Below, in pieces: positions 13,804-31,714 of a stretch of 64,000 nt of DNA. Numbering within the stretch: position 1 is the stretch's first letter; each line of letters opens with the position of its first letter. Source of the DNA: Achromobacter xylosoxidans (GTDB taxonomy: Bacteria > Pseudomonadota > Gammaproteobacteria > Burkholderiales > Burkholderiaceae_B). Location: contig NZ_CP061008.1 of the NCBI RefSeq assembly GCF_014490035.1, positions 2,046,001 through 2,110,000 on the forward strand, read 5' to 3'. Both the position numbers and the translations under genes were made by a program. The notes under the pieces are model-generated. The model saw nothing but the letters and a program-made list of their open reading frames with translations, made no database searches and had not been told where the DNA came from.

Positions 13804-14895
13804 TCACTCAACCCGCCACCGCCCCGCCTCATCATCCCGCAACCTTGCTCCGGCCCACACAACCCGCCCCAACACCCGCACCGATGCCCCGTTTTCCAGC
13901 GGTATGTCATCGTGCAAGGAATTGAACGAGCGCGCCACCCATTGTCCGGTAAGCCGTTCCCTGGCCACCGTCTTGACGATCATCTTGCCGTCGTAGTTGA
14001 TGGCATAGACGCCGCCGGCGGCGATGTCCTGCAGCGTCAGGCTTTCGTTGGGGACCACCAGCAAGGCAGCGCCGTCACGGATGACGGGTTCCATGCTGTC
14101 GCCCTTCGCGTAGACGACTCGGCCCCGGCCGTTGTCCGCGCCTACCGATCTGAGGAATGACTTGCGGAACTGGATCATGCCGGTCTGCTCTTCGGCGTGG
14201 TTCTCGATGGGGTCGCCCGCCGCCAGCCGCACGTCGGCCAGTTCCGGGACCTTCTCGAACCTGTCGTTGGCCGCGGGCGGTTCGCCCACGCCTACGTTGG
14301 CGACCACGCCTGTCTGGGTGCTGATCCGGACCCGGCCTTCGCGCTCTGTCTGGCGCGTGGTCTTGCCACCTTCCCAGGGCGCCGCGGGCAGGTCATCGAT
14401 GCGCATGGGGAACTCGTCCCGGGACAAATAGGTGTCCACCAGCGAGTCGCTGCGCAGGACCGTCGGCATTTGCGGCGCGGTAGTCCCAGGGGATACGTCA
14501 ATCCCCAGCTTCAATTGCGCGATCGCCAGCGCAAGCGCGCCCTGCAATTTGTTCAGCTGATCCGGGGGCAATGCCCGCACCTGTTCTTCCGGGATGCCCG
14601 GGAAGGGCCACGGAGGGGGCGCCAGCACCGCTGCGGCCAGGGATCCATCGCGCGCAGGCAGTTTCGGGGCGGTGCCGTCATACAGCCATTGCGCGTTCAC
14701 GCGCAGCAGCGGGGCGACCTTGATGCAGGTCGCCATGTCCATGCCGTTGGACCCATTGAACCAATGCGTCGCGGCGCCGGAAGAGGCGCCGGCGGCCTTC
14801 CATAGGTCTGTCTTGGTAAGGCGTGGCTCGGCCGCGTCCGCCCGGCGGGCCGCTTCCTCGTTGAACGCCTGTGTGATTCGCTTCTGAAAGGTCAT
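13804..14895 (-). CDS. CI-like phage repressor with S24 peptidase domain
   Basis: The 363-residue protein has an N-terminal helix-turn-helix (LTKTDLWKAAGASSGAATHWFNG, about residues 26-48), a long linker, and a C-terminal LexA/CI-type S24 domain. The catalytic Ser is in YAKGDSMEPVI and the Lys in NYDGKMIVKTV, so RecA-stimulated self-cleavage is expected. It should keep the rightward genes silent and release them after DNA damage. It is divergent from the replication and tail genes, and two operator-like dyads lie in the 109-bp gap. A decayed second copy of its 3' end lies at 12295-12446. Confidence 0.9.
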   Translation of the reverse strand: MTFQKRITQAFNEEAARRADAAEPRLTKTDLWKAAGASSGAATHWFNGSNGMDMATCIKVAPLLRVNAQWLYDGTAPKLPARDGSLAAAVLAPPPWPFPGIPEEQVRALPPDQLNKLQGALALAIAQLKLGIDVSPGTTAPQMPTVLRSDSLVDTYLSRDEFPMRIDDLPAAPWEGGKTTRQTEREGRVRISTQTGVVANVGVGEPPAANDRFEKVPELADVRLAAGDPIENHAEEQTGMIQFRKSFLRSVGADNGRGRVVYAKGDSMEPVIRDGAALLVVPNESLTLQDIAAGGVYAINYDGKMIVKTVARERLTGQWVARSFNSLHDDIPLENGASVRVLGRVVWAGARLRDDEAGRWRVE

Positions 14896-14910
14896 CTTAG
14901 GATGCTAAAC
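14895..14910. promoter_or_regulatory. Operator-like dyad overlapping repressor start
   Basis: TCTTAG-GATG-CTAAAC is an imperfect version of the perfect dyad at 14940-14959, with the same half-site (CTTAG) and four-base spacer. Binding here would block the repressor's own start. Confidence 0.55.
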
Positions 14911-14939
14911 AAAAACAATCTTAGTTGGCTTGCATTTAG

Positions 14940-14959
14940 AATCTTAGCATTCTAAGATT
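14940..14959. promoter_or_regulatory. Operator-like perfect dyad
   Basis: AATCTTAGCATTCTAAGATT has 8-bp arms (AATCTTAG / CTAAGATT) and a four-base spacer. A further single half-site AATCTTAG lies at 14917-14924. The group is centred between the repressor and the rightward genes, as expected for an immunity operator. Confidence 0.7.
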
Positions 14960-15004
14960 TAAGAATGATAGCGAGGTAAGACTGGCGGGGATGCAAAAAC
15001 ACGC

Positions 15005-15838
15005 ATGAACTACTACAGCCACAACATCGGTGACTACGCACAGGCCACGGCGCATCTGAGCCTGCTCGAAGATGCCATCTACAGCCGCCTGCTGCGCCGG
15101 TACTACGCCGAAGAGCAGCCCATCGTGGACAACCTGCAGCAGGTATTCCGGTGGGTGGGCGCCCGTAGCGAAGAAGAAAGAGAGGCGGCCGCGCAGGTGC
15201 TGGCCGAGTTCTTCGTCCTGCGCGATGGCCATTGGCACAACAAGCGGGCGGACGTGGAGATTGCCGCGTATCACGTCAAGGCCGAGACCGCCAAGGCCAA
15301 CGGCAGGCGAGGCGGCCGGCCCAGGCAGGGCGGGTGCAATCCGGAACAACCCAGTGGGTTTCCCATGGGTTTCGACGAGCAACCCGGCCATGGCCCGGCA
15401 GAAGGCGGATCGGAAGCTAACCAAGAACCAGGAACCAAGAACCAGGAACCAACAGAACACGCCTCCCGCAAGCGGGGAAGCGGATTCGATGCTTCCGTGA
15501 TCGAACTGCCGGATTGGCTGGACCGCGAGGACTGGGTCAGCTGGATCGCCGACCGCAAGGCCCGTAAAAAGCCGGTGACGCAGGAGGGCGCCAGGCGCCA
15601 GCTGCAACAGCTTGCCGCCTATCTGGCCGCAGGGCATCGGCCAGGCGCCGTGATCGCAAACAGCATCGCGGGCGGGTATCAGGGCCTCTTCCCGCCGCGG
15701 ACATCCGCTACAGCTGGCCAACAACCGGCAGGCAGGGCGCAACGCCTGGCCGACTGGACCGAGGAGCTGCGAGAAGTACTGGCCGACGATGGCAGGCCGC
15801 GCGAGCGGTTCATGGGGACGATCGATGCAACCCGCTGA
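15005..15838 (+). CDS. DUF1376 (YdaU-like) phage replication protein
   Basis: The 277-residue protein opens with the DUF1376 signature MNYYSHNIGDYAQATAHLSLLEDAIYSRLLRRYY and continues with a winged-helix-like region to about residue 100. A low-complexity Pro/Gln/Glu/Asn linker follows (about 110-160), and then a C-terminal helical domain (LDREDWVSWIADRKARKKPVT). Family members are thought to act as phage replication initiators, with primosomal-type C-termini. It begins the rightward operon just after the operators. The linker is encoded by a near-tandem AGGAACCAAGAACC repeat. Confidence 0.8.
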   Translation: MNYYSHNIGDYAQATAHLSLLEDAIYSRLLRRYYAEEQPIVDNLQQVFRWVGARSEEEREAAAQVLAEFFVLRDGHWHNKRADVEIAAYHVKAETAKANGRRGGRPRQGGCNPEQPSGFPMGFDEQPGHGPAEGGSEANQEPGTKNQEPTEHASRKRGSGFDASVIELPDWLDREDWVSWIADRKARKKPVTQEGARRQLQQLAAYLAAGHRPGAVIANSIAGGYQGLFPPRTSATAGQQPAGRAQRLADWTEELREVLADDGRPRERFMGTIDATR

Positions 15839-16568
15839 CATCCCTTCCGCCACCATGGGCGCGTTGGTGGTGAACGAAATGCTGCTGATGTATGGCGCCA
15901 AGTTCGCGCAGCAATGGCAGGGCCTGACCGCCCGCGAGTTGAAGGATTCATGGAACCAGAAGCTGGCGGGCCTGGACGAGGTGCAGGTGCGCCGCGGCCT
16001 GGTCGCCTGCCTGACTCAGGAATGGCCGCCGACGCTGCCGCAGTTCATCAAACTATGTTGCCCGTGGATGGTCCCTGAAGTGGCGTATCACGAGGCCGTG
16101 CGCGGCCTGTCCGCGCGCAGGCGCGGCGAGCGCGGCGCCTGGTCGCATCCGGCGGTGTACTGGGCTGCGGTGGGCGTGAGCACGGTGGATCTGCTGGGCT
16201 GCACCTACGGGGCCATCAAGGCGCGCTGGGAGAAGACGCTGAACGAGGAACTGGCGAAGGGCGTGTGGGCGGATATCCCGCTGCCTCGCCCAGCGCTGCC
16301 CGCGCCCGGCCAGACGCTGGCCACGCGCGCCGAGGCCGAGGCGGCGCTCAAGAAAATGGGCGCGCAGAAGGTTCTGAGGGACCGTGGATGTCCGCCCCGG
16401 AGCTGGATCGAAAAGTGGGAGGCGCGCATCGCGCGCGGCGACCACCCGAGCAAGGGCATCGCCGACATGCTCAAGCGCGCCAAGGGCGAAAGCCAGGATA
16501 CGGAGGGCCGTCTGAAGAACGGTTCCAACGGCAAGACAGGTAAACAATGCGAGGTGGCTGATGAGTAA
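15825..16568 (+). CDS. Replication protein P-like helicase loader
   Basis: From the ATG at 15825 the protein has 247 residues and overlaps the previous gene by 14 bp. The N-terminal part (VVNEMLLMYGAKFAQQWQGL, SWNQKLAGLDEVQVRRGLVACL, EWPPTLPQFIKLC) resembles the lambda-P-like replication proteins that load the host helicase. The C-terminus is helical and charged. With the DUF1376 gene it would form an O/P-like replication pair. Keeping such genes is odd for a particle with no head and suggests recent domestication. Confidence 0.65.
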   Translation: MQPADIPSATMGALVVNEMLLMYGAKFAQQWQGLTARELKDSWNQKLAGLDEVQVRRGLVACLTQEWPPTLPQFIKLCCPWMVPEVAYHEAVRGLSARRRGERGAWSHPAVYWAAVGVSTVDLLGCTYGAIKARWEKTLNEELAKGVWADIPLPRPALPAPGQTLATRAEAEAALKKMGAQKVLRDRGCPPRSWIEKWEARIARGDHPSKGIADMLKRAKGESQDTEGRLKNGSNGKTGKQCEVADE

Positions 16569-16917
16569 ATTGACGGGTGACGATCTGATCTGGAACTGGG
16601 CCCGATGGACCTGGTCCGGCGCTACGGTGGGAAACATGGAGGTGTATCTCTCCGAAGAGGAGGACTACCGGCCCATCAACCATCACCACGCCATGGAGGT
16701 CGAGGCGATGCACGCCGCGCTGCCTTGGCATGAGCGCATGATCATCATTGCCGAATATCCGCAGAAGAACGTGATGTTCGGCCAGCTGGACGGCAGGGCG
16801 CGCCGCGCGAAGGCGCTGGTCTGGATTGCCGATACGACCGGCGTGGCCCTGACCGAAACCGAATACAAGTTGTACCTGGGCCTTTTTCGCGGCCTGGTGG
16901 AAAGGAGGCTGGCGTGA
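16561..16917 (+). CDS. Hypothetical phage protein, possible late regulator
   Basis: The 118-residue protein is helical and rich in Trp and Glu near its N-terminus (GDDLIWNWARWTWSG) and has a repeated-helix C-terminus (ALTETEYKLYLGLFRGLVERR). It overlaps the P-like gene by 8 bp and the next gene by a GTGA junction. Its place, after replication genes and just before the late genes, is where Q-type antiterminators or late activators sit. I see no motif that proves such a role. Confidence 0.55.
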   Translation: MSKLTGDDLIWNWARWTWSGATVGNMEVYLSEEEDYRPINHHHAMEVEAMHAALPWHERMIIIAEYPQKNVMFGQLDGRARRAKALVWIADTTGVALTETEYKLYLGLFRGLVERRLA

Positions 16918-17174
16918 AGTACGCGCACGAGGTGATGGATCTGATGGCCTGCTATCCCGGCCGCTCATTCCGTTTGATGGAGCTGGTCCGTCATGTGTCA
17001 CGCGGCCGGTGTCTGTCTGCTCCTGAAAAGACACGCCTGCAAAGAGGCATCCAGCGCGCCATGGATGCGCTGCAGGATACCGGCAGCGTGCTGATTCAAG
17101 AGCCCCAGCAAGGCGGGCACGGACGTACCTATGCATGGCGTGTGACGGTTCCGTCACAAGACCCCGCCCCATAG
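16914..17174 (+). CDS. Small winged-helix-like phage protein
   Basis: The 86-residue protein starts at a GTG that overlaps the previous stop. It looks like a helix-turn-helix or winged-helix protein: VMDLMACYPGRSFRLMELVRHV, then LQRGIQRAMDALQDTGSVLIQE and a beta wing (GHGRTYAWRV). It could regulate the late genes. Its last 12 codons overlap the first copy of the duplicated control cassette, including the dyad TGTGACGGTTCCGTCACA. Confidence 0.55.
   Translation: MKYAHEVMDLMACYPGRSFRLMELVRHVSRGRCLSAPEKTRLQRGIQRAMDALQDTGSVLIQEPQQGGHGRTYAWRVTVPSQDPAP
17141..17158. promoter_or_regulatory. Perfect dyad, copy 1
   Basis: TGTGACGGTTCCGTCACA has 7-bp arms around a four-base centre. Likely a regulator binding site controlling the tail operon; it lies inside the 3' end of the winged-helix-like gene. 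Confidence 0.6.
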
Positions 17175-17225
17175 GTCACGCAATCGGTCACAATTTGTCC
17201 GGGGCATTGCGCCCCAAGCAAATGC

Positions 17226-17252
17226 AGCCCTGGCCACGTGCCGGGGCTTTTT
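17226..17252 (+). terminator. Terminator in control cassette 1
   Basis: AGCCCTGGC-CACGT-GCCGGGGCT followed by T tract. Ends early rightward transcription unless antiterminated. Confidence 0.7.
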
Positions 17253-17314
17253 GTTTTCGGCGCATGGCTTCGGTTTTTATGGGCGGGGCAGGGGGCGAAC
17301 TTCTTTGCACAGCG

Positions 17315-17332
17315 TGTGACGATTCCGTCACA
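17315..17332. promoter_or_regulatory. Perfect dyad, copy 2
   Basis: TGTGACGATTCCGTCACA keeps the 7-bp arms of copy 1, and differs only in the centre, as expected if the arms are under selection. Confidence 0.6.
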
Positions 17333-17412
17333 AGACCTCGCCCCATCGGTCACGCAATCGATCACAATTGGTCCGGGGCATTGCGCCCCTGACAAATGCA
17401 ACCCCGAAATAC

Positions 17413-17438
17413 AGCCCCGGCCACGTGCCGGGGCTTTT
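17413..17438 (+). terminator. Terminator in control cassette 2
   Basis: AGCCCCGGC-CACGT-GCCGGGGCT followed by TTTT. It stands 54 bp before the first tail gene, so late expression needs antitermination here or a promoter after it. Confidence 0.7.
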
Positions 17439-17491
17439 GCATTTGGGCGCGATGTTTCGGCGCCTGTCTTCTTCAGCAGGAATCCAACTCC

Positions 17492-18025
17492 ATGAGCGTT
17501 CAGATCAGCATCACTGAAAACCAGCTGGTAGAGGACCTCGCCGCATTCTTCAAGACCTTGGTCGACTGCGACGTTGTCCGCGGTTTGCCTGGCTGGGTTC
17601 CCGCGCCACCGCGCGAGTGCGTCGCCATTACTCCGCTGGCGGCGCAGGGCCTTTCCGTGCCGGTCATGACCTATGCCGATCCGTCGCCTGCGGCGGGGAA
17701 ACGAATCATGACCCAGGCCACGCACTGGTCTGCCCGGGTGGATGGCTACGGGGCGCGGGCCCTGGACCTGGCGCTCACGTTGTCGATTGCCTTGCGCAGC
17801 CAGTACGGGTGCGAGTTCCTGGGAAAGCTGGGAAGAACTCAACCGCTATACGCGGGCGAGCTCAAGCAATTGCCCTTCGAGAGCGGAGAAAGCCAGACCT
17901 TCGAGCGGTGGTCGTTCGACGCCGTCCTGCAGTTCAACCCTTCCATTAGCGTGCCGCAGCAGTTTGCGGACCACCTTCACGTGGGCCTCATCGAGGCCGA
18001 CACCACCTACCCTACGGGAGCTTAA
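17492..18025 (+). CDS. Phage neck terminator / gp12-like protein (LIC_12616 type)
   Basis: The 177-residue protein starts at 17492, after AGCAGG. The signature region (ATHWSARVDGYGARALDLALTLS, SGESQTFERWSFDAVLQFNP, DHLHVGLIEADTTYP) fits the neck/tail-terminator family that caps the tail tube at the head-proximal end. In phages it follows capsid and head-completion genes. Here it is the first structural gene, directly after control cassettes. In a headless particle it would close the top of the tail. Confidence 0.7.
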   Translation: MSVQISITENQLVEDLAAFFKTLVDCDVVRGLPGWVPAPPRECVAITPLAAQGLSVPVMTYADPSPAAGKRIMTQATHWSARVDGYGARALDLALTLSIALRSQYGCEFLGKLGRTQPLYAGELKQLPFESGESQTFERWSFDAVLQFNPSISVPQQFADHLHVGLIEADTTYPTGA

Positions 18026-18029
18026 TCCT

Positions 18030-19508
18030 ATGTCCATTCCCGCCAGTGAAATCGTCCAGGTCGTGCCTGGCGTGATCGCCGCCGGCGGATCGGCGCTCGA
18101 TTTGAACGGCCTGATCCTGACCCACGATACTGCCGTCCCCATCGGCACCGTCCAGAGCTTCGCGACTGCGCGCGACGTCCAGCGCTTCTTCGGTCCCACC
18201 TCGACCGAAGCCGCCCTGGCCGACGTCTACTTCAACGGCTTCGACAACTCGACCCGCAAGCCGGGCAATCTGCTGTATGCCCAATATCCGGCGGCAGCGG
18301 TTTCGGCCTATTTGCGTGGCGGCTCGATGGCCGCCGTGACGCTGGCCCAGCTGCAGGCGCTGTCCGGCATCCTGACGGTCAGCGTGGATGGCGTGGCCAA
18401 GACGTCCTCCAGCATCGACCTGTCGACGGCAACGAGCTTCTCGAACGCCGCCTCGATCATCGAAGCGGCGTTCACCGCCATGGGCGCGACCTGCGGCTAT
18501 GACGCGCAGCGCGCCGCTTTCGTGATCACCTCGGCCACCGACGGCGCCGCCAGCACGGTCTCCTATGGCAGCGGCACCCTCGCATCGGGCTTGAAGCTGA
18601 CGCAGGCCGCAGGCGCCCTGGTGTCGCATGGGGCCGCGGCCGGCGTCCCGGCGGTGGACATGGGCCGGATTATCGACCTGACCCAGAACTGGGCGGCGTT
18701 CATGACGACCTTCGAGCCCGATACGGCCGGCAAGGTGGCGTTTTCGGCGTGGACCAATGCCCAGGGCGACCGCTATGCCTACGTCGGTTGGGACACCGAT
18801 GTCACCGCCACGCAGCAGGGCAATACGTCCAACTGGGCGGCGGTCGTAAGCGCCAACGAGTACTCGGGTTCCGTGCCTGTCTACAAGGACATCCTGCATG
18901 CCGCCTTTGTCCTGGGCGCGGTGGCGTCGCTGGACTTCGAACGCACCAACGGCCGCGCCACGCTGGCGTTCAAAGGCCAGTCGGGCCTGGCGTTCTCGGT
19001 GACCGACGCCACGACCGCTCAGACGCTGATCGACAACGGCTACAACTTCTATGGCGACTACGCCACCAGCAACGACCGCTTCCGCTTCCTGTACCCGGGC
19101 CAGATCAGCGGCAACTGGAAATGGGTCGACACCTACGTCAATCAGATCTGGTTGAACGCGGCGTTCCAGCAGGCACTGATGAGCTTGCTGACCCAGGTGA
19201 ACGCCATTCCCTACAACATCGACGGCTACACGCTGATCGACGCTGCCTGCCTGGACCCGATCAACGCCGCGGTCAACTTCGGCGCCATCCGCGCCGGCGT
19301 GACGCTGTCGAGCCAGCAGAAGGCGCAGATCAACAGCCAGGCCGGCGTGGATATCTCCGACACGCTCCAGACCCGCGGCTGGTATCTGCAGATCAAGGAC
19401 GCGACGCCGCAGGTGCGAGAGGCTCGCGGCACCCCGCCCATGACGTTCTGGTACCTGGACGGCGGTTCCGTCCAGCAGATCACCCTGGCCTCGCTGGCCA
19501 TTCTTTAA
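18030..19508 (+). CDS. Contractile tail sheath protein (DUF3383 family)
   Basis: The 492-residue protein has the features of DUF3383 sheath-like proteins: N-terminal IVQVVPGVIAAGGSALDLNGLILT, FATARDVQRFFG, YFNGFDNSTRKPGNLLYAQY, and a C-terminal conserved part with NGYNFYGDYATSNDRF, WVDTYVNQIWL and INSQAGVDIS. Such proteins form the outer contractile sheath. It follows the neck protein by 4 bp. An alternative longer frame opens at 17742, but the ATG at 18030 fits the family start. Confidence 0.85.
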   Translation: MSIPASEIVQVVPGVIAAGGSALDLNGLILTHDTAVPIGTVQSFATARDVQRFFGPTSTEAALADVYFNGFDNSTRKPGNLLYAQYPAAAVSAYLRGGSMAAVTLAQLQALSGILTVSVDGVAKTSSSIDLSTATSFSNAASIIEAAFTAMGATCGYDAQRAAFVITSATDGAASTVSYGSGTLASGLKLTQAAGALVSHGAAAGVPAVDMGRIIDLTQNWAAFMTTFEPDTAGKVAFSAWTNAQGDRYAYVGWDTDVTATQQGNTSNWAAVVSANEYSGSVPVYKDILHAAFVLGAVASLDFERTNGRATLAFKGQSGLAFSVTDATTAQTLIDNGYNFYGDYATSNDRFRFLYPGQISGNWKWVDTYVNQIWLNAAFQQALMSLLTQVNAIPYNIDGYTLIDAACLDPINAAVNFGAIRAGVTLSSQQKAQINSQAGVDISDTLQTRGWYLQIKDATPQVREARGTPPMTFWYLDGGSVQQITLASLAIL

Positions 19509-19517
19509 GGATTCAAC

Positions 19518-19949
19518 ATGGCGACTTTGACCAGTGCCAACTCGGTTCTGATGCTTACGGTGGGCGGCGTTTTTTCGGTGCCGCAGAAAATCGAGGGCTA
19601 CGCTTCCGACAGCGCCTTCACCTTCGACGCTGCCAAGCCCGCGCAGGTAACCATGGGCGTGGACGGCCGCATGTCGGCCGGCTACGTGCCGGTCCCCTGC
19701 GTGCAGACAATCATGATCCAGCCCGACTCCCCGTCCATGCGCATCTTCGAGATCTGGATGGCGGCCAGCGAAACGGCCCGGGAAGTGTTCTATGCAAACG
19801 GCACCCTCAACATCCCGTCGATCGACCGCAAGTACACGCTGACCCGCGGCGTGCTGACGCAGATTCCGCCGGCGCCGGATGCCAAGGCGATGCTCCAACC
19901 CATGGCGTTCCAGATCACCTGGCAGAACGTCTCTCCGGCGCTGGTGTGA
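19518..19949 (+). CDS. Tail tube protein (DUF3277-like)
   Basis: The 143-residue protein is rich in beta-strand sequence (VLMLTVGGVFSVPQKIEGYASDSAFTF, VTMGVDGRMSAGYVPVP, TLTRGVLTQIPPA) and matches the inner tube proteins paired with DUF3383 sheaths. Copies stack in rings inside the sheath and make the channel. It sits 9 bp after the sheath gene and immediately before the tape-measure chaperone, the standard myovirus order. Confidence 0.8.
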   Translation: MATLTSANSVLMLTVGGVFSVPQKIEGYASDSAFTFDAAKPAQVTMGVDGRMSAGYVPVPCVQTIMIQPDSPSMRIFEIWMAASETAREVFYANGTLNIPSIDRKYTLTRGVLTQIPPAPDAKAMLQPMAFQITWQNVSPALV

Positions 19950-19950
19950 C

Positions 19951-20385
19951 ATGGCCAGAAAGCAGATAACCCTGACCATCGGCGCGGAAGGGCGCGACAA
20001 GGGCAAGGTGTTCATCCTGACGGAGCTTTCTGCCTACGACGCCGAGGAATGGGCCGGCCGGGCGCTGTTTTCGTTGATGAACGCCGGGGTGGAAATTCCG
20101 GACAACATCGCCGAGGCAGGACTGGCCGGCGTGGCCGCCATGGGCATGAAGGCTCTCGCCAAGCTGCCTTTCGACAGCGCCAAGCCCTTGCTGGACAAGA
20201 TGATGGATTGCGTGCAGATCCAGCCCAGCCCAAGTGTGACGCGCGAGCTCATGTCTGGCGATGTCGAGGAGGTGGCGACCCTGTTCGCGCTGCGCAAGAA
20301 AGTCCTGGGCTTGCACCTGGATTTTTTTACGGCCGCCGTCCCATCGACTTCGGGCTCCAAGTCCACAACGGCGGCACGCGCCTGA
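19951..20385 (+). CDS. Tail assembly chaperone, short form (frame 0)
   Basis: The 144-residue protein starts two bases after the tube stop. It has a beta-rich start (KQITLTIGAEGRDKGKVFILTELSAYDAEEWAGRALFSL) and helical middle (LLDKMMDCVQIQPSPSVTRELMSGDVEEVATLFALRKKVLGLHLDFF), like the G-type chaperones that coat the tape measure protein during assembly. Near its 3' end the run of seven T at 20322-20328 allows a -1 shift into a protein-like extension. Confidence 0.75.
   Translation: MARKQITLTIGAEGRDKGKVFILTELSAYDAEEWAGRALFSLMNAGVEIPDNIAEAGLAGVAAMGMKALAKLPFDSAKPLLDKMMDCVQIQPSPSVTRELMSGDVEEVATLFALRKKVLGLHLDFFTAAVPSTSGSKSTTAARA
20322..20328 (+). other. Slippery T7 site for programmed -1 frameshift
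   Basis: In frame 0 the codons are GAT TTT TTT ACG, giving the heptamer T-TTT-TTT. A one-base backward slip makes the next codon TAC and opens the downstream frame to 20549. Location at the end of the chaperone gene just before the tape measure is the classic G/GT position. Confidence 0.65.
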
Positions 20386-25117: not shown

Positions 25118-26329
25118 ATGCCGAACAACTCGAAAGTGCCGCGCGTGCAGTTCACGCCGGAAGGGCTGGTGCTGCCCAACGAATCCGCCATCCTCGCCGG
25201 CGTCCTGTCTGACATGGACGCGGCCTTCGGTGGCGGGCTGAATCCCGCGCTGGAAACGCCCCAGGGCCAGCTGGCCTCCAGCACCACCGCCATCATCGGC
25301 GACAAGAACAACGAGTTCGCGACCTACGTGAACCAGGTCGACCCGGCCTATGCGCAAGGGCGGATGCAGGACGCCATCGGGCGGATCTACTTCCTGGACC
25401 GCAAGCCGGGTACGCCTACCGCTGTCATCGCAACCTGCACGGGCCTGGCGGGCGTGACGATACCCGTGGGCGCGCGCGCCCAGGCGGTGGATGGCAATCT
25501 GTATCTGTGCACCCAGGCGGGAACGATACCGGCCAGCGGAAGCGTCGACCTGCCATTCGCTTGCTCGGTCGATGGGCCGGTGGATTGCGCGCCAGGCGCA
25601 CTGAACCAGATATATCAGGCCATTCCCGGTTGGGAGTCGGTATCGAACGCCGATGCCGCAACGGTGGGCAGCCATGTGGAAAGCCGGGCCGAGTTCGAGG
25701 AGCGCCGGCGGCAGTCGGTGGCGCTGAACGCCCGCGGCTCGATCCCGGCGATCTACGCCAACGTGGCGAACGTGGAGGGCGTCATCGACGCCTACGTGAC
25801 GGAGAACGATCTCTCCGTACCGAAGACGGTCGGCGGCGTCGTCCTGCGTCCGCACTCCATCTGGGTCGCGGTGACGGGCGGCGAGGCGGCGGACATCGCA
25901 GATGCCATCTGGCGCAAGAAGAGCAATGGCTCCGACTACAACGGCAACACCTCCTATACCGTGGAGGACAAGGAGGGATATGCCTATCCCTACCCGTCGT
26001 ATGTCGTGACCTGGGAAACCCCGGCAGCGCTGCCCGTGCGCTTCGCGGTGCAGCTCGCGGACAACCCCGCGCTGCCGTCGGACATTGTGGCTTTGACCAA
26101 GCAGGCGATCATGGACGCCTTCAACGGCGGAGATGGCGGGCAGCGCGCGCGGATCGGATCGACCATTTATGCCAGCCGCTTCTACGCACCCATTTCGGTG
26201 CTGAGCCCGGTGGTCTCCATCCTGTCCTTGCTGCTGGGCTCCGACACGCCGTCGGGCGCCAGCCTGGCCGTACCGATCAACCGCCGGCCCACGATCACGG
26301 CCAGCGATATTGCGGTGACATTGATATGA
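25118..26329 (+). CDS. Baseplate J / gp47 wedge protein
   Basis: The 403-residue protein shows the baseplate-J pattern: TPEGLVLPNESAILAGVLSDMDAAFGG, LATSTTAIIGDKNNEF-like (LASSTTAIIGDKNNEFATYVNQVDP), and SRAEFEERRRQSVALNARGSIPAIYANVANVEGVIDAYV. It builds the wedges around the hub. The stop overlaps the next ATG (ATGA). Confidence 0.85.
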   Translation: MPNNSKVPRVQFTPEGLVLPNESAILAGVLSDMDAAFGGGLNPALETPQGQLASSTTAIIGDKNNEFATYVNQVDPAYAQGRMQDAIGRIYFLDRKPGTPTAVIATCTGLAGVTIPVGARAQAVDGNLYLCTQAGTIPASGSVDLPFACSVDGPVDCAPGALNQIYQAIPGWESVSNADAATVGSHVESRAEFEERRRQSVALNARGSIPAIYANVANVEGVIDAYVTENDLSVPKTVGGVVLRPHSIWVAVTGGEAADIADAIWRKKSNGSDYNGNTSYTVEDKEGYAYPYPSYVVTWETPAALPVRFAVQLADNPALPSDIVALTKQAIMDAFNGGDGGQRARIGSTIYASRFYAPISVLSPVVSILSLLLGSDTPSGASLAVPINRRPTITASDIAVTLI

Positions 26330-27000
26330 GCGTCGTGCCTAAGCCGGGGCTGGCGGCCCGGACCCTCATCAGCCAGTACGCCAACAGCCCCACGCTCGTC
26401 CAGTTGATCAACAACATGGACGACTACATCAACCCCGACGCCGATTTCGACGCTTTCCATGACTTTGTCTGGAACGTCGAGACCGCGCAGGGTTTCGGGC
26501 TGGACATCTGGGGCAGGATCGTCGACGTCGGCCGGATGCTGACGGTGCCGGGAGACGTTGCCTATCTGGGATTTGACGAGGCGCTGAACTGGCAGCCCTT
26601 CAACCAGGCGCCGTTCTACACAGGCGAGCAAGCCACGCAGACGTATCGGCTCGCCGACGACGCGTATCGCACGCTCATCCTGGTCAAGGCGCTGGCCAAC
26701 ATCTCGGACTGCACTTCGCCCAGTTTGAACCGGCTGCTGTCGAACCTCTTCGCGGGGCGCGGGCGTTGCTACGTGTCGGACACAGGGAGGATGGAATTCC
26801 GCTACGTGTTCGAGTTCGCGCTGGCGCCGCATGAAATCGCCATCCTGACTCAATCAGGCGCGATACCCAAGCCGGCCGCGGTTCTGGCGAACATCCTCCA
26901 GGTCGATCTTTCTACTACGTTCGGATTCAACGAAGCGCTGATGCAGCCGTTCGGCTCGGGCGTACTTTTCACTTCTTCGGGGCTTATCAATGCAAGCTAG
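26326..27000 (+). CDS. Baseplate protein, DUF2612 / gp48 type
   Basis: The 224-residue protein has TLISQYANSPTLVQLINNMDDYINPDADFDAFHDFVWNVETAQGFGLDIWGRIVDVGR, the hallmark of DUF2612/gp48 proteins that link wedges to tail fibres. It is encoded between gp47/J and the fibre gene and overlaps the fibre gene by 11 bp. Confidence 0.8.
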   Translation: MSVVPKPGLAARTLISQYANSPTLVQLINNMDDYINPDADFDAFHDFVWNVETAQGFGLDIWGRIVDVGRMLTVPGDVAYLGFDEALNWQPFNQAPFYTGEQATQTYRLADDAYRTLILVKALANISDCTSPSLNRLLSNLFAGRGRCYVSDTGRMEFRYVFEFALAPHEIAILTQSGAIPKPAAVLANILQVDLSTTFGFNEALMQPFGSGVLFTSSGLINAS

Positions 27001-27766
27001 CAATGCACCTATCAAATCGGCCGTCCCGTTTGCGGAAAGCGGGACGAAGAACACTATTCCAGTTGCGTCGCAGATCGGCGTGACGCCGGGGGCGGCGTCC
27101 TTCGCGGACGGATTTCCTCCGTTGACGATGACTCCTCTGGCCGCCGGCGGCGTTCCGCCTCACGGTGCGGATTTCAATGGAATCTTCAACTTTCTTAGCG
27201 CTGCTGTGCGTTGGACGCAATCTGGAGGAGGGTATGCGTACGATTCCGCATTCTCTACTGCCATCGGTGGATACCCAAGGGGCGCCAGGCTTAGGCAAGC
27301 GTCCGGTAATGGCTATTGGTTGAGCCTTCTGGATAACAACACTTCCAACCCGGATATCGGTGGAGCCGGGTGGGTAGCAACGGGCGCGGGTATCGCGACC
27401 ACTGCTCAGGCGCAGGCTATGAGTGATGATTCAGTGCTGCTGACGCCGAAGAAATTGGTCGATGCTTTCACTCCCGGTCAGGTGCTGTCCTTCGTTGGAT
27501 TGAACCAGCAGCTGCCTGGAGGGCTGATTCTCAAGGCTGGGGCTTTCAACGGCGCTTCCGGAACCATCAATTTCCCCACGCCTTTTCCAAACGTTGCGTT
27601 TGCAGTCTTTGGGACTGAGTCCGCCGTGTTTGGTGCGGAAAGCCTCGACTTTGTCATGTTCCAGTATCGAGGCCTGGATCGATTCAAGTTCCACCCCGAG
27701 CTGCGGAACAAGACGGGGACTTACCCGAACGCCGCGTCAATGCGCTATCTCGCAATTGGCTATTGA
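26990..27766 (+). CDS. Tail fibre protein
   Basis: The 258-residue protein has a baseplate-binding N-terminus (SGTKNTIPVASQIGVTPGAASFADGFPPLTMTPLAAGGVPPHGADFNG) found in many Bordetella-type phage fibres. A short shaft follows, and then a C-terminal gp53-like receptor-binding domain (INFPTPFPNVAFAVFG to MRYLAIGY). It sets the target range. It is short for a fibre, so it either makes a stubby fibre or works with the beta-helix protein at 29803. Confidence 0.8.
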   Translation: MQASNAPIKSAVPFAESGTKNTIPVASQIGVTPGAASFADGFPPLTMTPLAAGGVPPHGADFNGIFNFLSAAVRWTQSGGGYAYDSAFSTAIGGYPRGARLRQASGNGYWLSLLDNNTSNPDIGGAGWVATGAGIATTAQAQAMSDDSVLLTPKKLVDAFTPGQVLSFVGLNQQLPGGLILKAGAFNGASGTINFPTPFPNVAFAVFGTESAVFGAESLDFVMFQYRGLDRFKFHPELRNKTGTYPNAASMRYLAIGY

Positions 27767-27774
27767 GGAGCATC

Positions 27775-28284
27775 ATGAACAACAATCAAAAAATCCACGT
27801 TTCCGGGGAAACCGGATCGACGCTGTCTTCCTCCCCATCGACGGCGCCGGCGCGCACCTACTTCTTCTCAGCCTCGCAGAATGCATTTTTCCTGTCCGAT
27901 GAGCAGCGCCTTTTCCAGGCGGCGGGTACTTTGCCATCAGATTTGACGCCGGTGGGTCAAATGATCTTCCAGGAGTTCGCGCTCGAGTTGCCGCCGGCAG
28001 GGAAGACTCGACGCGTAAGCGAGGCGGGCGCGCCATGCTGGGTGGACGAACCACCGTTGCCCGACGCTGTTATTGCCGCGCGAAACCAGGGAGAGAGGAG
28101 CGCACTCTTGCGCTTGGCGACCGAGCAGATCGCGCCTCTGCAGGACGCGGTCGACCTCGGCCTGGCCACGGCCGAGGAAGCGGAGCGGTTGCACGCCTGG
28201 AAGGCCTATCGCGTAGTGTTGAACCGCCTTGAGGGTAAGGAAGGGTATCCGTTGCTGGTCGAGTGGCCGGAGCAGCCCGACTAG
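27775..28284 (+). CDS. Tail fibre assembly chaperone
   Basis: The 169-residue protein starts at 27775, with GAGGAG five bases before it. The C-terminus carries the family signature (ATEQIAPLQDAVDLGLATAEEAERLHAWKAYRVVLNRLEGKEGYPLLVEWPEQP). It should help the fibre at 26990 trimerise. A decayed fragment of the same family lies at 7354-7512. Confidence 0.85.
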   Translation: MNNNQKIHVSGETGSTLSSSPSTAPARTYFFSASQNAFFLSDEQRLFQAAGTLPSDLTPVGQMIFQEFALELPPAGKTRRVSEAGAPCWVDEPPLPDAVIAARNQGERSALLRLATEQIAPLQDAVDLGLATAEEAERLHAWKAYRVVLNRLEGKEGYPLLVEWPEQPD

Positions 28285-28373: not shown

Positions 28374-28388
28374 CGACGAGGGGCGAAA

Positions 28389-28697
28389 TTGAACATCCAA
28401 GATTTCGACGCCCTTGCCGCAAAGCTCGCCGGCGTTCTGGGCGCAGCGGTTTCCATGCGCTATCTGCAAGGATCATGGCCAGCCCGGCTGAGCATGGCTG
28501 CCAGCGGCTCGTTGGTGGCGTACTACGCGGCTCCCTATCTGTCGCTGCTGCTGGAGATTCCAGAAGGCCTCGCCGGTTTTCTGACCGGCATGTTCGGCAT
28601 GGCCATCGTCTCCCGAGGATGGGAGGTTGTGCAGACCGTTCCCATCGGCGCGTTGTGGCAGGCCGTGATCGACCGAGTGCGCGGCAGAGGGGCATGA
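28389..28697 (+). CDS. Phage holin
   Basis: The 102-residue protein starts at TTG (28389). It has three hydrophobic stretches (LAGVLGAAVSMRYL, SMAASGSLVAYYAAPYLSLLL, GLAGFLTGMFGMAIVSRGWEVV) and a basic tail (DRVRGRG), the build of class I/II holins that open the inner membrane for the endolysin. It begins the lysis cassette. Confidence 0.75.
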   Translation: MNIQDFDALAAKLAGVLGAAVSMRYLQGSWPARLSMAASGSLVAYYAAPYLSLLLEIPEGLAGFLTGMFGMAIVSRGWEVVQTVPIGALWQAVIDRVRGRGA

Positions 28698-28731
28698 GGC
28701 GCATCGTTTCATTCATGCGGAGACTTCATCC

Positions 28732-29142
28732 GTGAGTACTTTCCAACTATCCCAACGCAGCCTGGACCGCCTGGTCGGGGTGCATCCCGACCTGGCCGAG
28801 ATCGTCCAACTGGCGATTCAACGCACGACGGTCGACTTCACTGTGGTGGAAGGCGTTCGTACCCTTGAGCGGCAACGCGAGTACGTCGCCCGTGGCGCCA
28901 GCCAGACGATGGCCAGCTACCACTTGGCGCAGGAGGACGGGCTGAGCCATGCCGTTGACCTGGCGCCGCTGATTGATGGGGTGATTCCCTGGAGCAACTG
29001 GCAGGCCTTCGCCGGCCTGGCGCAGGTGGTCAAAGCCTGCGCGGCCGAGCTCGGTGTTCCGGTGGAATGGGGCGGCGACTGGAAGACGCTCAAGGACGGC
29101 CCGCACTTCCAGATCCCGCGCGGCTGGAAGGGACGCGCATGA
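28732..29142 (+). CDS. Endolysin, M15-family peptidase (L-Ala-D-Glu type)
   Basis: The 136-residue protein starts at GTG. Its zinc ligands match M15 endolysins: the first His and Asp in SHAVDLAP and the last His in DGPHFQIP, with the typical VEWGGDWKTLKDGPHF. It cuts peptidoglycan cross-bridges. It has no signal peptide, so it depends on the holin. Confidence 0.85.
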   Translation: MSTFQLSQRSLDRLVGVHPDLAEIVQLAIQRTTVDFTVVEGVRTLERQREYVARGASQTMASYHLAQEDGLSHAVDLAPLIDGVIPWSNWQAFAGLAQVVKACAAELGVPVEWGGDWKTLKDGPHFQIPRGWKGRA

Positions 29143-29540
29143 ACGCATCGCTGCGCGCGTTGGCGCCGTATCTGATCGGCGCCGTCCTGGTGGCCGCCGC
29201 CTTCCTGTGTGTGCGCTGGTATGGCGCCGTTCAGTATCGCGCCGGAATAGACCAGGCCAATGCCGACTACACGCTGGCCGAGCTCACCGAGTTCCAGCGT
29301 CAGACGACGCGCCTGGGCGGGATCTCCGAATCCCTGGAAGGCGCGCTTGCTGCGTTACGCGGCGCCAGCCCCAAGATCATCGAGAGGTACACCCGTGTCG
29401 AAGTCCAGAGCCCTCTACCTGCTGGCTGCCGCATTGACGCTGAGCGGCTGCGGCACATCAACGAGGCCGGCCGTCTGGCCAATTCTGCCAGCCAACCTGG
29501 CGCAGTCGTGCCCGCCAGTGCCCGAGGTGACGAGCGATAG
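29139..29540 (+). CDS. Rz-like inner-membrane spanin
   Basis: The 133-residue protein overlaps the endolysin stop (ATGA). It has an N-terminal membrane helix (LAPYLIGAVLVAAAFLCVRWYG) and a periplasmic helical region (DQANADYTLAELTEFQRQTTRLGGISESLEGAL). It links to the outer-membrane spanin nested in its 3' half to fuse the membranes. Confidence 0.75.
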   Translation: MNASLRALAPYLIGAVLVAAAFLCVRWYGAVQYRAGIDQANADYTLAELTEFQRQTTRLGGISESLEGALAALRGASPKIIERYTRVEVQSPLPAGCRIDAERLRHINEAGRLANSASQPGAVVPASARGDER

Positions 29541-29655
29541 CTGGGACGATCTGGCGCGCAGCTACATCGCGCTGGTCGCGTTGTACGGAGAGTGTGCGGC
29601 ACGGCAGCGTGTGACGGCGCAGAGCTGGGAGAAGTCCCGGTTCGGCCCGTCGTGA
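29395..29655 (+). CDS. Rz1-like outer-membrane lipoprotein spanin
   Basis: The 86-residue frame starts at GTG (29395) with GAGAGG upstream, inside the Rz-like gene in another frame. It has a lipoprotein signal (SRALYLLAAALTLSGC) and then a Pro-containing periplasmic region (PAVWPILPANLAQSCPPVPE), the usual o-spanin layout. The two spanin genes overlap by 146 bp. Confidence 0.8.
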   Translation: MSKSRALYLLAAALTLSGCGTSTRPAVWPILPANLAQSCPPVPEVTSDSWDDLARSYIALVALYGECAARQRVTAQSWEKSRFGPS

Positions 29656-29689
29656 GACTGCGATCCGCCAGGTCATGCTGCAACAGATA

Positions 29690-29714
29690 GCCCGCACTCC
29701 GCGGGCTTTTTTTT
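29690..29714 (+). terminator. Rho-independent terminator after the lysis genes
   Basis: GCCCGC-ACTCC-GCGGGC followed by eight T. It closes the main tail/lysis operon. Confidence 0.85.
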
Positions 29715-29802
29715 GTCCATCCAAGAGAAAGCCATGTAGACCGGATATGCAAACAGAGAATGCCCCCTAGCCCAGCAGCGGCAAATTTCCCGGAGATATC
29801 AC

Positions 29803-31611
29803 ATGACGATCAGAACTCTTTCCCTACAGCAACTGAAACGCTCGGCCGAGAATTCGGCCGCGTTGAAGCATCATGTCGATGATGATGCAGCCGTTCTCCC
29901 AGAACCTCGCACTTCCAGTGCACCGGACAACATGGCTGGGCATTCTGTTCAAGTCCAGGACCATGGCCCGATCGCGGATGGCACGCTCCATACGCTCGCG
30001 GAGCGTTACGCCACGTTGTCGGCCGCCCAAGTCGACTATCCTTTCATCACCTCACTGGCCGAATCCATCGACGGTGCGGCTATTCAAGCCGCATTGGATG
30101 CGGCTTTCAACAGCGGGCTCGGTCAGGTGCAGTGCGCCGGCGGAACCTACGTCATCAATTCGTCTATCCGGATGCGCGCCGGCGTGGAACTGGTTGGCGA
30201 CGGCAAGACCGTTATTACGCAGCCGGACGGCCTGAATCTGCTTATTCTGATCGATTTCGGTTTCGCACATGGCGCTGGGCTGCGCGGATGCACGGTCAAC
30301 GGCAACCGCGGCAACAATGCTGCAGACTACAACGCGGTTCTCGTGCATGTGCGTGGGGCCGATGACGCAACGGTCCGTGACAATGTGCTTGTTGGCAGCT
30401 GCGGATACGGCATCACATGCAGCGCAGCGCGCATGAGCGTCGTCGGCAATCACATCGAGGACACGTTCATGCATGCCATCGGCGTGTATGGATTCGTGGG
30501 GCAGGAGGCGAGGCATCTGATTCTTCAGAACAGGATCGTTCGCCCGGGCGCGGGAGCGATACTGCTCGGAGCCGCGGACTACACCATCATTTCAAACAAT
30601 ACGATCTATTCCCCCATCATCGGCGGGCGCGACGCCAGGCTGCGCGTGAACCTGACTGGCGCCGCCGTAACGTGGATTTCGGGGCCGAAGTTCACGAATG
30701 TGCGAGTAGGCGAAGTGCTGGTTATCGACGGAGGCAGGGAATTCCGGATCATGGCGAGAATCAGCGACACGCAATTGACGATAGATCCAGAAGGTAGCTC
30801 GCCGGCGCTGACGAACGAACTGGCGACTATCGGGTGTGGCGATCTGATCGGCGTGATGAGTCAATTTTGCAGGATCACGGACAACGTCCTGGTTGGCGGC
30901 GCCACGTTCGGGATTGGGTGCACGGTGGGCGGCAACGCTGTAAGCACGGTCGGCAACGAGATCATGGGAAACACCCTGAGGGGGCAGGGCAAGCATGCGC
31001 TGGTCGTGGGCTGGGACGTGGGCGCTGGCGGCGTGTATGACACCGTTCTGCGCGGCAACATGGTCTACAACGCGGGCGACGCCGGTGGGAACAGCACATA
31101 CGACCGCATCCCGATTTTTCTGTTTGGCCAGACGCTGGGCAAGGTAGGCGGCGTCTTGGTGGAAGGAAATTACATCGTCGGCCCGGATGGCGACAGCCGC
31201 TGCCCATACTGGTTGGGCACGGACCTGAAGCTGGAATACGGATCAGTACTGGTTGGCCGAAACCACTCGATTCGCATGCTGAATCCCGGAATCTTTAACG
31301 ACGTGGTGGCTGTGTCGCTGTCCGGTTGGGGCGACGCGGCAAGCGCTACCGAAATTGTTTCTTACGGCCACTCCGTCCGCATGAAGATAAATTGTGCGGG
31401 CTCTGGATTCACTGCCGGTCCGTCCTTCACGATTCACAAGATCTGCGACAGCGCGGAGCAACCCGCAATGGTCAAGGCCGACATTACGACCACCACCGGA
31501 GCGCTCGGACAGATGTGGGGCGAACAGAGCACCGCGTTGGGGCAGTGGCGAGCCACGTACTACGGTACGCCGGCCGCTGGGAATGCTTTCGTCATTACCA
31601 CGCGGGCTTGA
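29803..31611 (+). CDS. Right-handed beta-helix protein, tailspike- or depolymerase-like
   Basis: The 602-residue protein has a helical N-terminal part (about 1-75). Pectate-lyase-like repeats follow (AALDAAFNSGLGQVQCAGGTYVINSSIRMRAGVELVGDGKTVI; VRDNVLVGSCGYGITCSA; VVGNHIEDTF; ITDNVLVGGATFGIGCT; ILRGNM-type coils), then a C-terminal beta domain (about 500-602). Tailspikes and phage depolymerases share this fold. It has no signal peptide. It forms its own transcription unit between two terminators and directly follows the lysis cassette, so it may be a second receptor-binding protein or a moron; catalytic residues are not evident. Confidence 0.7.
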   Translation: MTIRTLSLQQLKRSAENSAALKHHVDDDAAVLPEPRTSSAPDNMAGHSVQVQDHGPIADGTLHTLAERYATLSAAQVDYPFITSLAESIDGAAIQAALDAAFNSGLGQVQCAGGTYVINSSIRMRAGVELVGDGKTVITQPDGLNLLILIDFGFAHGAGLRGCTVNGNRGNNAADYNAVLVHVRGADDATVRDNVLVGSCGYGITCSAARMSVVGNHIEDTFMHAIGVYGFVGQEARHLILQNRIVRPGAGAILLGAADYTIISNNTIYSPIIGGRDARLRVNLTGAAVTWISGPKFTNVRVGEVLVIDGGREFRIMARISDTQLTIDPEGSSPALTNELATIGCGDLIGVMSQFCRITDNVLVGGATFGIGCTVGGNAVSTVGNEIMGNTLRGQGKHALVVGWDVGAGGVYDTVLRGNMVYNAGDAGGNSTYDRIPIFLFGQTLGKVGGVLVEGNYIVGPDGDSRCPYWLGTDLKLEYGSVLVGRNHSIRMLNPGIFNDVVAVSLSGWGDAASATEIVSYGHSVRMKINCAGSGFTAGPSFTIHKICDSAEQPAMVKADITTTTGALGQMWGEQSTALGQWRATYYGTPAAGNAFVITTRA

Positions 31612-31681
31612 GCATGGCCATGTGCGTATTCAGCATGGCCTGAGTGCGAGGTTGTGACGGGCAGGTGCCCGCCACCCAAAC

Positions 31682-31714
31682 AAAAGCCCGCAGGCGCAAG
31701 CCGCGGGCTTTTCT
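31682..31714. terminator. Bidirectional terminator
   Basis: AAGCCCGC / GCGGGCTT stem flanked by AAAA and TTTTC. It serves the beta-helix gene rightward and the small gene at 31718-31969 leftward. Confidence 0.7.

What the first reader, a model, noticed from the sequence alone, without database searches (positions are those of the whole stretch)
13804..31714. Headless contractile tail cluster: candidate tailocin
The cluster has repressor, replication-type genes, neck terminator, sheath, tube, chaperone, tape measure, Dit-like protein, plug, hub, spike, gp25, J, gp48, fibre, chaperone and a full lysis cassette. Terminase, portal, protease, capsid and head-completion genes are absent; only 317 bp of control sequence lie where they should be. 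There is no integrase. All tail and lysis genes look intact. That is the signature of an R-type bacteriocin built from a DUF3383-sheath myovirus, a lineage different from P2-derived R-pyocins. A simple deletion in a prophage is the alternative.
Basis: partly seen in the sequence, partly recalled or inferred. Interest (0 to 1): 0.85.

Follow-up and report, generated by a model that had tools for sequence, protein, structure and literature searches.

The report
Headless phage-tail weapon of Achromobacter
This stretch of an Achromobacter chromosome looks like a phage turned into a headless, spring-loaded tail that bacteria would release to kill rival strains, kept intact in several species and, unusually, still carrying the phage's DNA-copying genes.

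Summary
In detail: an intact contractile-tail and lysis cluster with an S24 repressor, no head, packaging or integrase gene, and 317 bp where the head module should be. It is not a one-strain deletion: the same short junction (303-327 bp) occurs in 6 of 6 readable Achromobacter genomes with a sheath at least 88% identical and in 16 of 16 readable IMG/VR contigs, while complete relatives carry about 10 kb with head genes there. The head-less loci form one clade (100/100), summed dN/dS is 0.11-0.17, and fibre tips differ (30-42% identity) between loci with sheaths about 99% or more identical. The ancestor was probably a prophage at a tRNA-His gene: two complete relatives with integrases sit there, one head-less locus has a full-length integrase, and one genome holds a tail-less relic. 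Best reading: an R-type tailocin derived in place from a DUF3383/E217-type temperate myophage. Two features depart from textbook tailocins: a conserved O-like/P-like replication module with an iteron-like array, and a tandemly duplicated control unit in place of the head genes. Particles, induction and killing are untested.

The parts
13804..14895 (-). S24 (LexA/CI-type) repressor, 363 aa, with Ser267/Lys308 in the expected contexts (contexts recalled)
   Evidence: Pfam PF00717 1.3e-13; CI-like repressor PHROGs; residues read from the sequence
14917..14959 (.). repressor operator candidates; palindrome AATCTTAGCATTCTAAGATT at 14940-14959
   Evidence: 2 matches with up to 3 mismatches in window, 0.02 expected; 19-bp core invariant in 6 of 6 genomes aligned, exact in 12 of the 13 IMG/VR contigs covering it, one mismatch in L108
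15005..15838 (+). O-like / primosomal replication initiator (DUF1376)
   Evidence: PF07120 3e-29; phrog_678 replication initiation O-like 4e-23; dN/dS 0.11-0.19
15419..15452 (+). iteron-like AACCAAGAACCAGG array inside the O-like gene (candidate replication origin, inferred)
   Evidence: Tandem Repeats Finder; recognisable, with changes, in the aligned head-less genes
15825..16568 (+). P-like helicase loader
   Evidence: phrog_109 2.4e-16; dN/dS 0.04-0.10
16561..16917 (+). gene 4: conserved protein of Achromobacter/Bordetella relatives, candidate late regulator (inferred)
   Evidence: 101 homologues, none with an informative name; all-helical model pLDDT 83, no fold match at E <= 0.001
16914..17174 (+). 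gene 5: small protein, candidate regulator (inferred); in complete prophages G035 and G014 the homologue is part of a 244-aa protein
   Evidence: phrog_20616, no function; sequences
17129..17435 (+). control region in place of the head module: two tandem units (174-bp spacing), each with TGTGAC-N6-GTCACA, GGTCAC-N6-GGTCAC-like and GGGGCATTGCGCCCC elements and an intrinsic terminator
17492..18025 (+). tail (neck) terminator
   Evidence: PF23961 3.9e-15 on the ORF from 17396
18030..19508 (+). contractile tail sheath (DUF3383)
   Evidence: PF11863 2e-140 on the ORF from 17742; phrog_205 tail sheath; phage sheath chains 8env/9b42/8fvg
19518..19949 (+). tail tube-position protein
   Evidence: PF22764 E217_Gp32 4e-21; position
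19951..20549 (+). tail assembly chaperone (0-frame to 20385) with putative -1 frameshift at TTTTTTTA 20322 giving a 198-aa fusion
   Evidence: phrog_1932; 198-aa fusion frame in 7 of 7 head-less loci
20554..22221 (+). tape measure protein with phage tail lysozyme domain
   Evidence: PF18013; PHROG tape measure; intact ORF in 7 of 7
22221..22865 (+). Dit-like baseplate protein
   Evidence: PF21821, 22.6 bits against a cut-off of 24.2
22862..23161 (+). baseplate plug
   Evidence: PF22479 Pam3_gp18
23158..24039 (+). baseplate hub
   Evidence: PF22759 E217_GP41, phrog_196
24032..24763 (+). spike with GpV apex motif
   Evidence: PF18946
24760..25110 (+). gp25-like baseplate wedge
   Evidence: phrog_120
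25118..26329 (+). baseplate J
   Evidence: PF04865; matches 8env_J gp44
26326..27000 (+). DUF2612 baseplate/structural protein
   Evidence: PF11041 1e-59
26990..27766 (+). tail fibre; conserved N-terminus, exchanged C-terminus
   Evidence: PF21882; identities
27763..28284 (+). tail fibre assembly chaperone (Tfa)
   Evidence: PF02413 9e-26
28389..28697 (+). holin
   Evidence: phrog_2359
28732..29142 (+). endolysin (peptidase M15)
   Evidence: PF13539, phrog_465
29139..29655 (+). spanins Rz (29139-29540, by position only) and Rz1 (29395-29655)
   Evidence: PF23793 LysC, phrog_456
29803..31611 (+). beta-helix accessory protein, possibly a second tailspike; not part of the conserved core
   Evidence: PF13229; absent in 5 of 7 head-less loci, only end pieces in G004, full length beside the relic G001
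12289..12444 (-). fragment of a second repressor gene (3' end)
   Evidence: tblastn 75% to residues 312-363

Best explanation
The cluster is an R-type tailocin (contractile phage-tail bacteriocin) derived in place from a temperate DUF3383/E217-type myophage that had integrated at a tRNA-His gene in an Achromobacter ancestor. Shown by sequence: absence of the whole head and packaging module at a junction shared by one clade of loci (consistent with a single ancestral loss), absence of integrase and right attachment site from the window's copy, intact tail, lysis, repressor and replication genes under purifying selection, the same chromosomal site in all copies whose left flank was read, and exchange of fibre tips. 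Inferred: DNA damage makes RecA trigger self-cleavage of the S24 repressor, which frees the early operon (O-like, P-like, gene 4, gene 5); gene 4 and/or gene 5 then activate the tail-lysis operon through the duplicated control unit and its terminators; head-less tails assemble, holin/endolysin/spanins lyse the producer, fibres bind a surface glycan of related strains, and sheath contraction drives the tube through the envelope and depolarises the target.
For: Head-less junction in 6 of 6 readable genomes and 16 of 16 readable IMG/VR contigs; about 10-12 kb with head genes between gene 5 and the terminator in five complete relatives where gene 5 is recognisable (G025, G035, G014, G110, G124); single clade, 100/100; summed dN/dS 0.11-0.17 over 3,467-4,563 codons per pair; ORFs intact in the genomes; G014's portal has no match in G000, G004, G061, G034, G019, G028 and only a 27-bit hit elsewhere in G031, its capsid protein none in all seven; tRNA-His site with integrase-bearing complete prophages and a second tRNA-end copy; fibre tips 30-42% identical in 7 of the 15 pairs with sheath identity of at least 98%; conserved operator and control unit.
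Against: No particle, induction or killing data. Tailocins are said to lack replication genes (PMC12090994, passage); this locus keeps them. A full-length integrase beside the A. mucicolens copy leaves some mobility possible there. Complete prophages show dN/dS in a similar range (0.07 and 0.28), so the ratio shows constraint, not which function is selected; single genes run higher (Rz up to 0.64, Dit and tube up to 0.40). G001 has lost the tail genes, so the locus can be lost. Host and locus trees agree well in one subclade but only loosely in the other.
Confidence: 0.87

Rival explanations
1. A defective prophage: a head-module deletion that happens to persist and is decaying, with no function for the host.
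For: The relic in G001, the loss of integrase in most copies read and the interrupted copy L131 (its many short frameshifts at high identity look like sequencing errors).
Against: A junction shared by six readable species-level genomes in one clade; intact ORFs and summed dN/dS 0.11-0.17 across tail, lysis and regulatory genes; conserved frameshift frame and control region.
Confidence: 0.06
2. A tail-donating satellite: a head-less element that replicates itself (O/P genes) and borrows heads and packaging from a helper phage, rather than a weapon.
For: Replication module and iteron-like array kept, genes under selection; a full-length integrase beside one copy; complete relatives at the same attachment site; a head-bearing prophage about 40 kb downstream in this genome.
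Against: No terminase or other packaging gene among the genes scanned in the locus; no second tRNA-end copy in the six head-less stretches that hold the tRNA and no integrase match beside the window's copy, G004, G028 or G034 with the two integrases used as queries; the downstream prophage has its own tail and lysis genes.
Confidence: 0.04
3. The tails serve another role, such as delivery of an effector or action on eukaryotic cells (eCIS-like).
For: A beta-helix protein lies beside the cluster.
Against: No AAA+ ATPase or effector gene among the genes scanned; fibre and Tfa are phage type; a lysis cassette is present; the beta-helix gene is absent from 5 of 7 head-less loci.
Confidence: 0.03

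Closest known systems
BceTMilo, R-type tailocin of Burkholderia cenocepacia (PMC5411513; abstract and one results section read)
   Same: Head-less prophage-derived tail cluster with CI-like repressor and lysis genes; breakpoint exactly between tail and head genes; found in many strains; RecA-dependent.
   Different: P2/KL3-derived, uses Ogr, retains an integrase; here the tail is DUF3383/E217-type, no Ogr among the family matches, and an O-like/P-like replication module is retained.
R-pyocins of Pseudomonas aeruginosa (P2-derived: passages of PMC12090994; other details recalled)
   Same: Same architecture and presumed mechanism; fibre-determined specificity.
   Different: Different sheath lineage: the sheath search matched no pyocin chain in the PDB; no PrtN/PrtR-type regulator among the family matches.
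Complete temperate DUF3383 prophages of Achromobacter (G025, G065, G035, G014) and of other genera (G110, G124, Paraburkholderia elongata L047)
   Same: Same tail genes and order; G035 and G065 lie at the same tRNA-His site.
   Different: They carry head genes upstream of the tail terminator (L047: capsid and DUF2213 matches only); the two site-mapped ones have integrases and a second tRNA-end copy.
Pseudomonas phage E217 and Burkholderia phage Bcep781 (PMC10329688 seen as listing with abstract start only)
   Same: Homologous sheath, hub and J proteins; that 8env is E217 is recalled.
   Different: Phages with heads; sheath identity under 60% in all 545 phage records matched.
Marinomonas R-type bacteriocin MEDPRO2 (PMC10870725, passages)
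   Same: Defective prophage without capsid genes giving contractile particles.
   Different: Reported without replication genes; most similar to R2 pyocin.

Membership tests
R-type tailocin | Complete contractile tail module (sheath, tube, tape measure, baseplate, spike, fibre) | tested here: met
R-type tailocin | No head or packaging genes in the locus; portal and capsid of its lineage absent from the genome | tested here: met
   one distant TerL in another prophage
R-type tailocin | Lysis genes for release | tested here: met
R-type tailocin | Maintained by selection across strains/species, not a single deletion | tested here: met
R-type tailocin | Modular receptor-binding fibre tips | tested here: met
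   7 of 15 pairs with sheath at least 98% have fibre C-terminus under 50%
R-type tailocin | No nucleic acid replication genes (as stated in PMC12090994, passage) | tested here: not met
   O-like and P-like genes present and constrained; hence filed as a variant that works like a tailocin
R-type tailocin | SOS/RecA-dependent induction | not testable with these tools
   S24 repressor with Ser/Lys and conserved operator are only consistent with it
R-type tailocin | Head-less particles that kill related strains | not testable with these tools
   needs microscopy and spot assays
P2-derived R-pyocin | P2-type sheath | tested here: not met
   DUF3383 sheath; PDB matches only phage gp31/gp32 sheaths
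Phage satellite | Own integration/excision functions | tested here: not met
   no integrase or second attachment site at the window's locus; a full-length integrase beside the A. mucicolens copy
Phage satellite | Packaging by a helper phage | not testable with these tools
   no terminase among the locus genes scanned; helper packaging needs experiment

The most novel reading that the evidence does not exclude
A self-amplifying tailocin: on induction the retained O-like initiator, P-like helicase loader and iteron-like origin fire replication of the chromosomal locus in place, without excision or packaging, multiplying the tail-gene templates (and perhaps seizing the host's helicase) before lysis, while a duplicated control unit that replaced the head genes couples this to late expression.
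Probability: 0.3. Interest if true: 0.8.

Novelty: new variant of a known kind. Interest (0 to 1): 0.63.

Why it matters
It adds a tailocin origin (DUF3383/E217-type temperate myophage) for which my ten searches of the held library listed no report, in a genus that includes cystic-fibrosis opportunists. The steps of domestication can be read in living relatives: complete prophage at the tRNA-His site, head-less copy beside an integrase, head-less copies without one, and a tail-less relic. It also makes an open question testable: whether a tailocin can gain from keeping phage replication genes, for instance by amplifying its own locus.

Tried and rejected
Simple one-strain deletion: rejected. 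Head genes elsewhere in trans: portal and capsid searches of the own genome were empty; the one Terminase_3 (31% over 221 residues to G014's TerL) sits in another prophage whose portal and capsid do not match, and the tailocin operator was not found in the 19 kb of it searched. PF03354 terminase: none in the own genome.

Gene 4 as a Q-type antiterminator: the alignment suggested it to me by eye, but there is no Pfam match and no fold match at E <= 0.001; left as a candidate. Sigma-70 promoter scan of 14850-18050: none found.

Host trees mixed strands and were discarded; one search is the correct one. The AU test concerned the head-less set plus G025, answers no question of this report and was not used. 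Flags of internal stops were rechecked: tape measures of G019, L116, L117 (451 aa) and L133 (466 aa) are open, and the G031 Rz1 flag is its normal end at residue 82. L131 stays interrupted; its many short frameshifts at high identity look like sequencing errors.

G131 (another genus, sheath 69%): a tail cluster with no match to four head proteins of G014, ORFs that look like host genes upstream, and an ORF that looks to me like an integrase at its right end. It may be a second head-less lineage or a remnant; not resolved, and its genes were not family-scanned. Not examined: the 12 sheath matches at 27-31% identity in the genus search.
Full report
WHAT IS THERE. The window lies in a 6.76-Mb single-contig genome (G000:C1:2046001-2110000). 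The species of the window itself is not named. Family scans give, in order: S24 repressor (-), O-like/primosomal protein, P-like helicase loader, two small genes (here gene 4 and gene 5), 317 bp, then tail terminator, DUF3383 sheath, tube-position protein, chaperone, tape measure with lysozyme domain, Dit-like, plug, hub, spike, gp25-like, J, DUF2612, fibre, Tfa, holin, endolysin, Rz (by position), Rz1. The only solved chains matching the sheath by sequence are three phage sheath sequences named gp31/gp32, and J matches a gp44 baseplate chain of the same entry 8env; no pyocin chain is matched.

HEAD GENES ARE MISSING AND NOT FOUND ELSEWHERE. The portal of the complete prophage in G014 has no match in G000, nor in G004, G061, G034, G019 or G028; G031 has only a 27-bit hit at another place (10 of 43 genus genomes matched, four of them at 83% or more). 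The capsid protein matches 6 of 43, four at 85% or more, and none of the seven head-less genomes. The one Terminase_3 in G000 lies about 40 kb downstream in a separate prophage with its own portal, capsid, tail and lysis genes; of these only TerL is distantly related (31% over 221 residues).

NOT A ONE-STRAIN DELETION. In the genus search 20 of 43 genomes have some DUF3383 sheath; 11 are at least 76% identical. Of these 11, six can be read at the junction and are head-less (G000, G004, G031, G028, G034, G019): 303-327 bp, measured from the last aligned residue of gene 5, or 317 bp from the stop codon in the window. A seventh, G061, has a contig end 118 bp before the terminator; a contig with an identical sheath, L113, is head-less with 307 bp. 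The other four are complete: G025, G035 and G014 have 10.1-10.5 kb between gene 5 and the terminator, and G065, in which gene 5 was not recognised, has portal and capsid genes upstream of the terminator. In a family-wide search 14 of 268 genomes match at E <= 1e-40: the same 11 plus three of other genera; G110 and G124 carry head genes between gene 5 and the terminator, G131 is unresolved. In IMG/VR 42 loci were found. Of 22 with sheath at least 88%, 16 can be read from gene 5 to the terminator; all 16 have 303-327 bp, and none of the 22 has a head match. Of 20 with sheath at most 85%, 17 show head genes and 3 do not; two of those 3 begin at or after the terminator and one (L130) has only 2.3 kb upstream.

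SELECTION AND HISTORY. A tree of 11 concatenated tail proteins from 12 loci places the seven head-less loci (G061 included) in one clade with 100/100 support. In the genomes the ORFs are intact; among contigs L131 alone stays interrupted, probably by sequencing errors. dN/dS summed over up to 20 genes (fibre, Tfa, Rz1 and beta-helix left out; early genes lacking for G061) is 0.112 (G000-G004), 0.130 (G000-G031), 0.172 (G000-G061), 0.172 (G028-G034), 0.173 (G034-G019); single genes reach 0.40 (Dit) and 0.64 (Rz); two pairs of complete prophages give 0.28 and 0.07. The gyrB+parE host tree (G028 and G030 with one gene only) gives the same branching for G019/G028/G034 and joins G000 with G004; G031 and G061 fall in the wider group of G000, together with genomes without the locus (G027, G030, G010, G011), the relic G001 and the complete-prophage host G035. 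The head-less label needs 3 changes on that tree, as few as in 18 of 500 shuffles, so losses or transfers have occurred too. Fibre tips are exchanged: of 15 pairs with sheath at least 98% identical, 7 have fibre C-termini under 50% identical (30-42%).

ORIGIN IN PLACE. The locus sits beside a conserved gene (43 of 43 genomes; a phospholipase-D type by its motifs, my reading, not scanned) and the 3' end of a tRNA-His (11 of 11 scanned loci, six of them head-less). In G028 and G034 an about 5-kb segment holding both is inverted. Complete prophages in G035 and G065 lie at this tRNA-His with a tyrosine integrase against it and a further copy of the tRNA end 47 and 45 kb on. In G065 that copy continues as far as I printed it, so an assembly duplication is not excluded, and G010, without this prophage, also has a second copy 3 kb away. 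The head-less stretches show no second copy. G019 keeps a full-length integrase (65% to that of G035) next to the tRNA, and G031 a C-terminal scrap. Integrase matches of both query types occur near head-less IMG/VR loci (L109, L111, L116, L117), so the site is probably a hot spot and the G019 integrase could be a later arrival. G001 holds a relic: repressor, internally deleted O-like gene, P-like, gene 4, gene 5, a reversed fibre-like piece and spanins, with the sheath-to-DUF2612 genes gone. In the window about 16 kb separates the tRNA-His from the repressor; part of it is shared with G031.

CONTROL. The repressor/O-like intergenic region carries a palindrome whose 19-bp core is invariant in 6 of 6 aligned genomes and exact in 12 of the 13 IMG/VR contigs that cover it, with one mismatch in L108. 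The 317-bp region is not debris: it overlaps two tandem copies of a unit (102 nt at 88%, 174 bp apart), each with TGTGAC-N6-GTCACA (2 matches in the window, 0.12 expected), a GGTCAC-N6-GGTCAC-like element, and an intrinsic terminator. Both copies are in 6 of 6 genomes, with up to 2-3 mismatches; G001 has one; none of the palindrome with at most 4 mismatches was found in G025, G065, G035 or G014, the other pieces giving a few scattered 4-mismatch hits. The GGTCAC element is present twice in all 16 readable IMG/VR contigs; the exact palindrome twice in 14 and once in 2. The most likely role is a late promoter/terminator pair driven by gene 4 and/or gene 5; this is inference, and neither sequence libraries nor a structure model identified gene 4.

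REPLICATION GENES. [quoted passage not shown] Here the O-like and P-like genes are present in 6 of 6 readable genomes and constrained (O-like dN/dS 0.11-0.19, P-like 0.04-0.10), open in the IMG/VR contigs that cover them, with an iteron-like array inside the O-like gene. That such arrays mark phage origins is recalled, not tested. Explanations: in-place amplification of the locus, interference with host replication, or a regulatory by-product. This is the most surprising feature.

LITERATURE. Ten searches: tailocin+Bordetella, tailocin+Achromobacter, tailocin+DUF3383 (0 papers), a five-term tailocin-diversity search, tailocin+Pantoea+Arya, R-type+bacteriocin+Bcep781, Achromobacter+phage tail-like+bacteriocin, tailocin with replication terms (20 of 403 listed), tailocin ancestries (25 of 103 listed), tailocin with E217/Bcep781/Pbunavirus/PB1-like (20 of 59 listed). 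Titles and abstract starts listed showed no report of an Achromobacter tailocin or of a DUF3383-lineage tailocin. Opened: PMC10457797 (outline and passages; its one tailocin mention was not among them), PMC13280938 (passages), PMC12090994 (passages), PMC5411513 (abstract and one section), PMC9230969 (passages, no DUF3383 or tailocin in its text), PMC10870725 (passages). The paper on different ancestries of R tailocins (PMC4684702) is not held, so the absence claim is limited.

VERDICT. An R-type tailocin of a lineage I did not find described, with unusually complete evidence of its origin by domestication; function inferred, not shown.

Noticed in passing
window 7523-9343 (-), 9783-11870 (-), 12615-13487 (-): Two acyltransferase-3 genes (one fused to an SGNH domain) and an FkbM methyltransferase lie between the tRNA-His and the repressor in this strain; no match at 1e-5 in the eight relatives' stretches. 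They could alter surface glycans, the presumed tailocin receptor, and so bear on self-resistance.
   Followed up: partly
window 12289-12444 and 7342-7506: A repressor 3'-end fragment (75% aa identity) and a weak tfa-like fragment (42%) upstream suggest remains of another related element at the same attachment site.
   Followed up: no
window 54754-55743 (-) to beyond the window end (L037): Integrase-like ORF, and further on TerL, portal, capsid and lysis genes of a separate prophage near the window's end.
   Followed up: partly
G131 (L098, L099): In another genus of the family, a DUF3383 tail cluster (sheath 69%) without recognised head genes upstream and with what looks like an integrase at its right end: a possible second head-less lineage or a remnant.
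   Followed up: partly
G028 and G034 left flank: An about 5-kb segment with the tRNA-His and the neighbouring conserved gene is inverted relative to G004 and G019.
   Followed up: no
window 2758-6134: Segment with HNH and DUF7424 genes 98% identical to G031, above the 83-91% of the other DNA shared with G031, suggesting recent transfer.
   Followed up: no
L131: A contig with a near-identical partial sheath but many short frameshifts in tube, tape measure, Dit, hub, spike and J: probably sequencing errors, possibly a decaying copy.
   Followed up: partly
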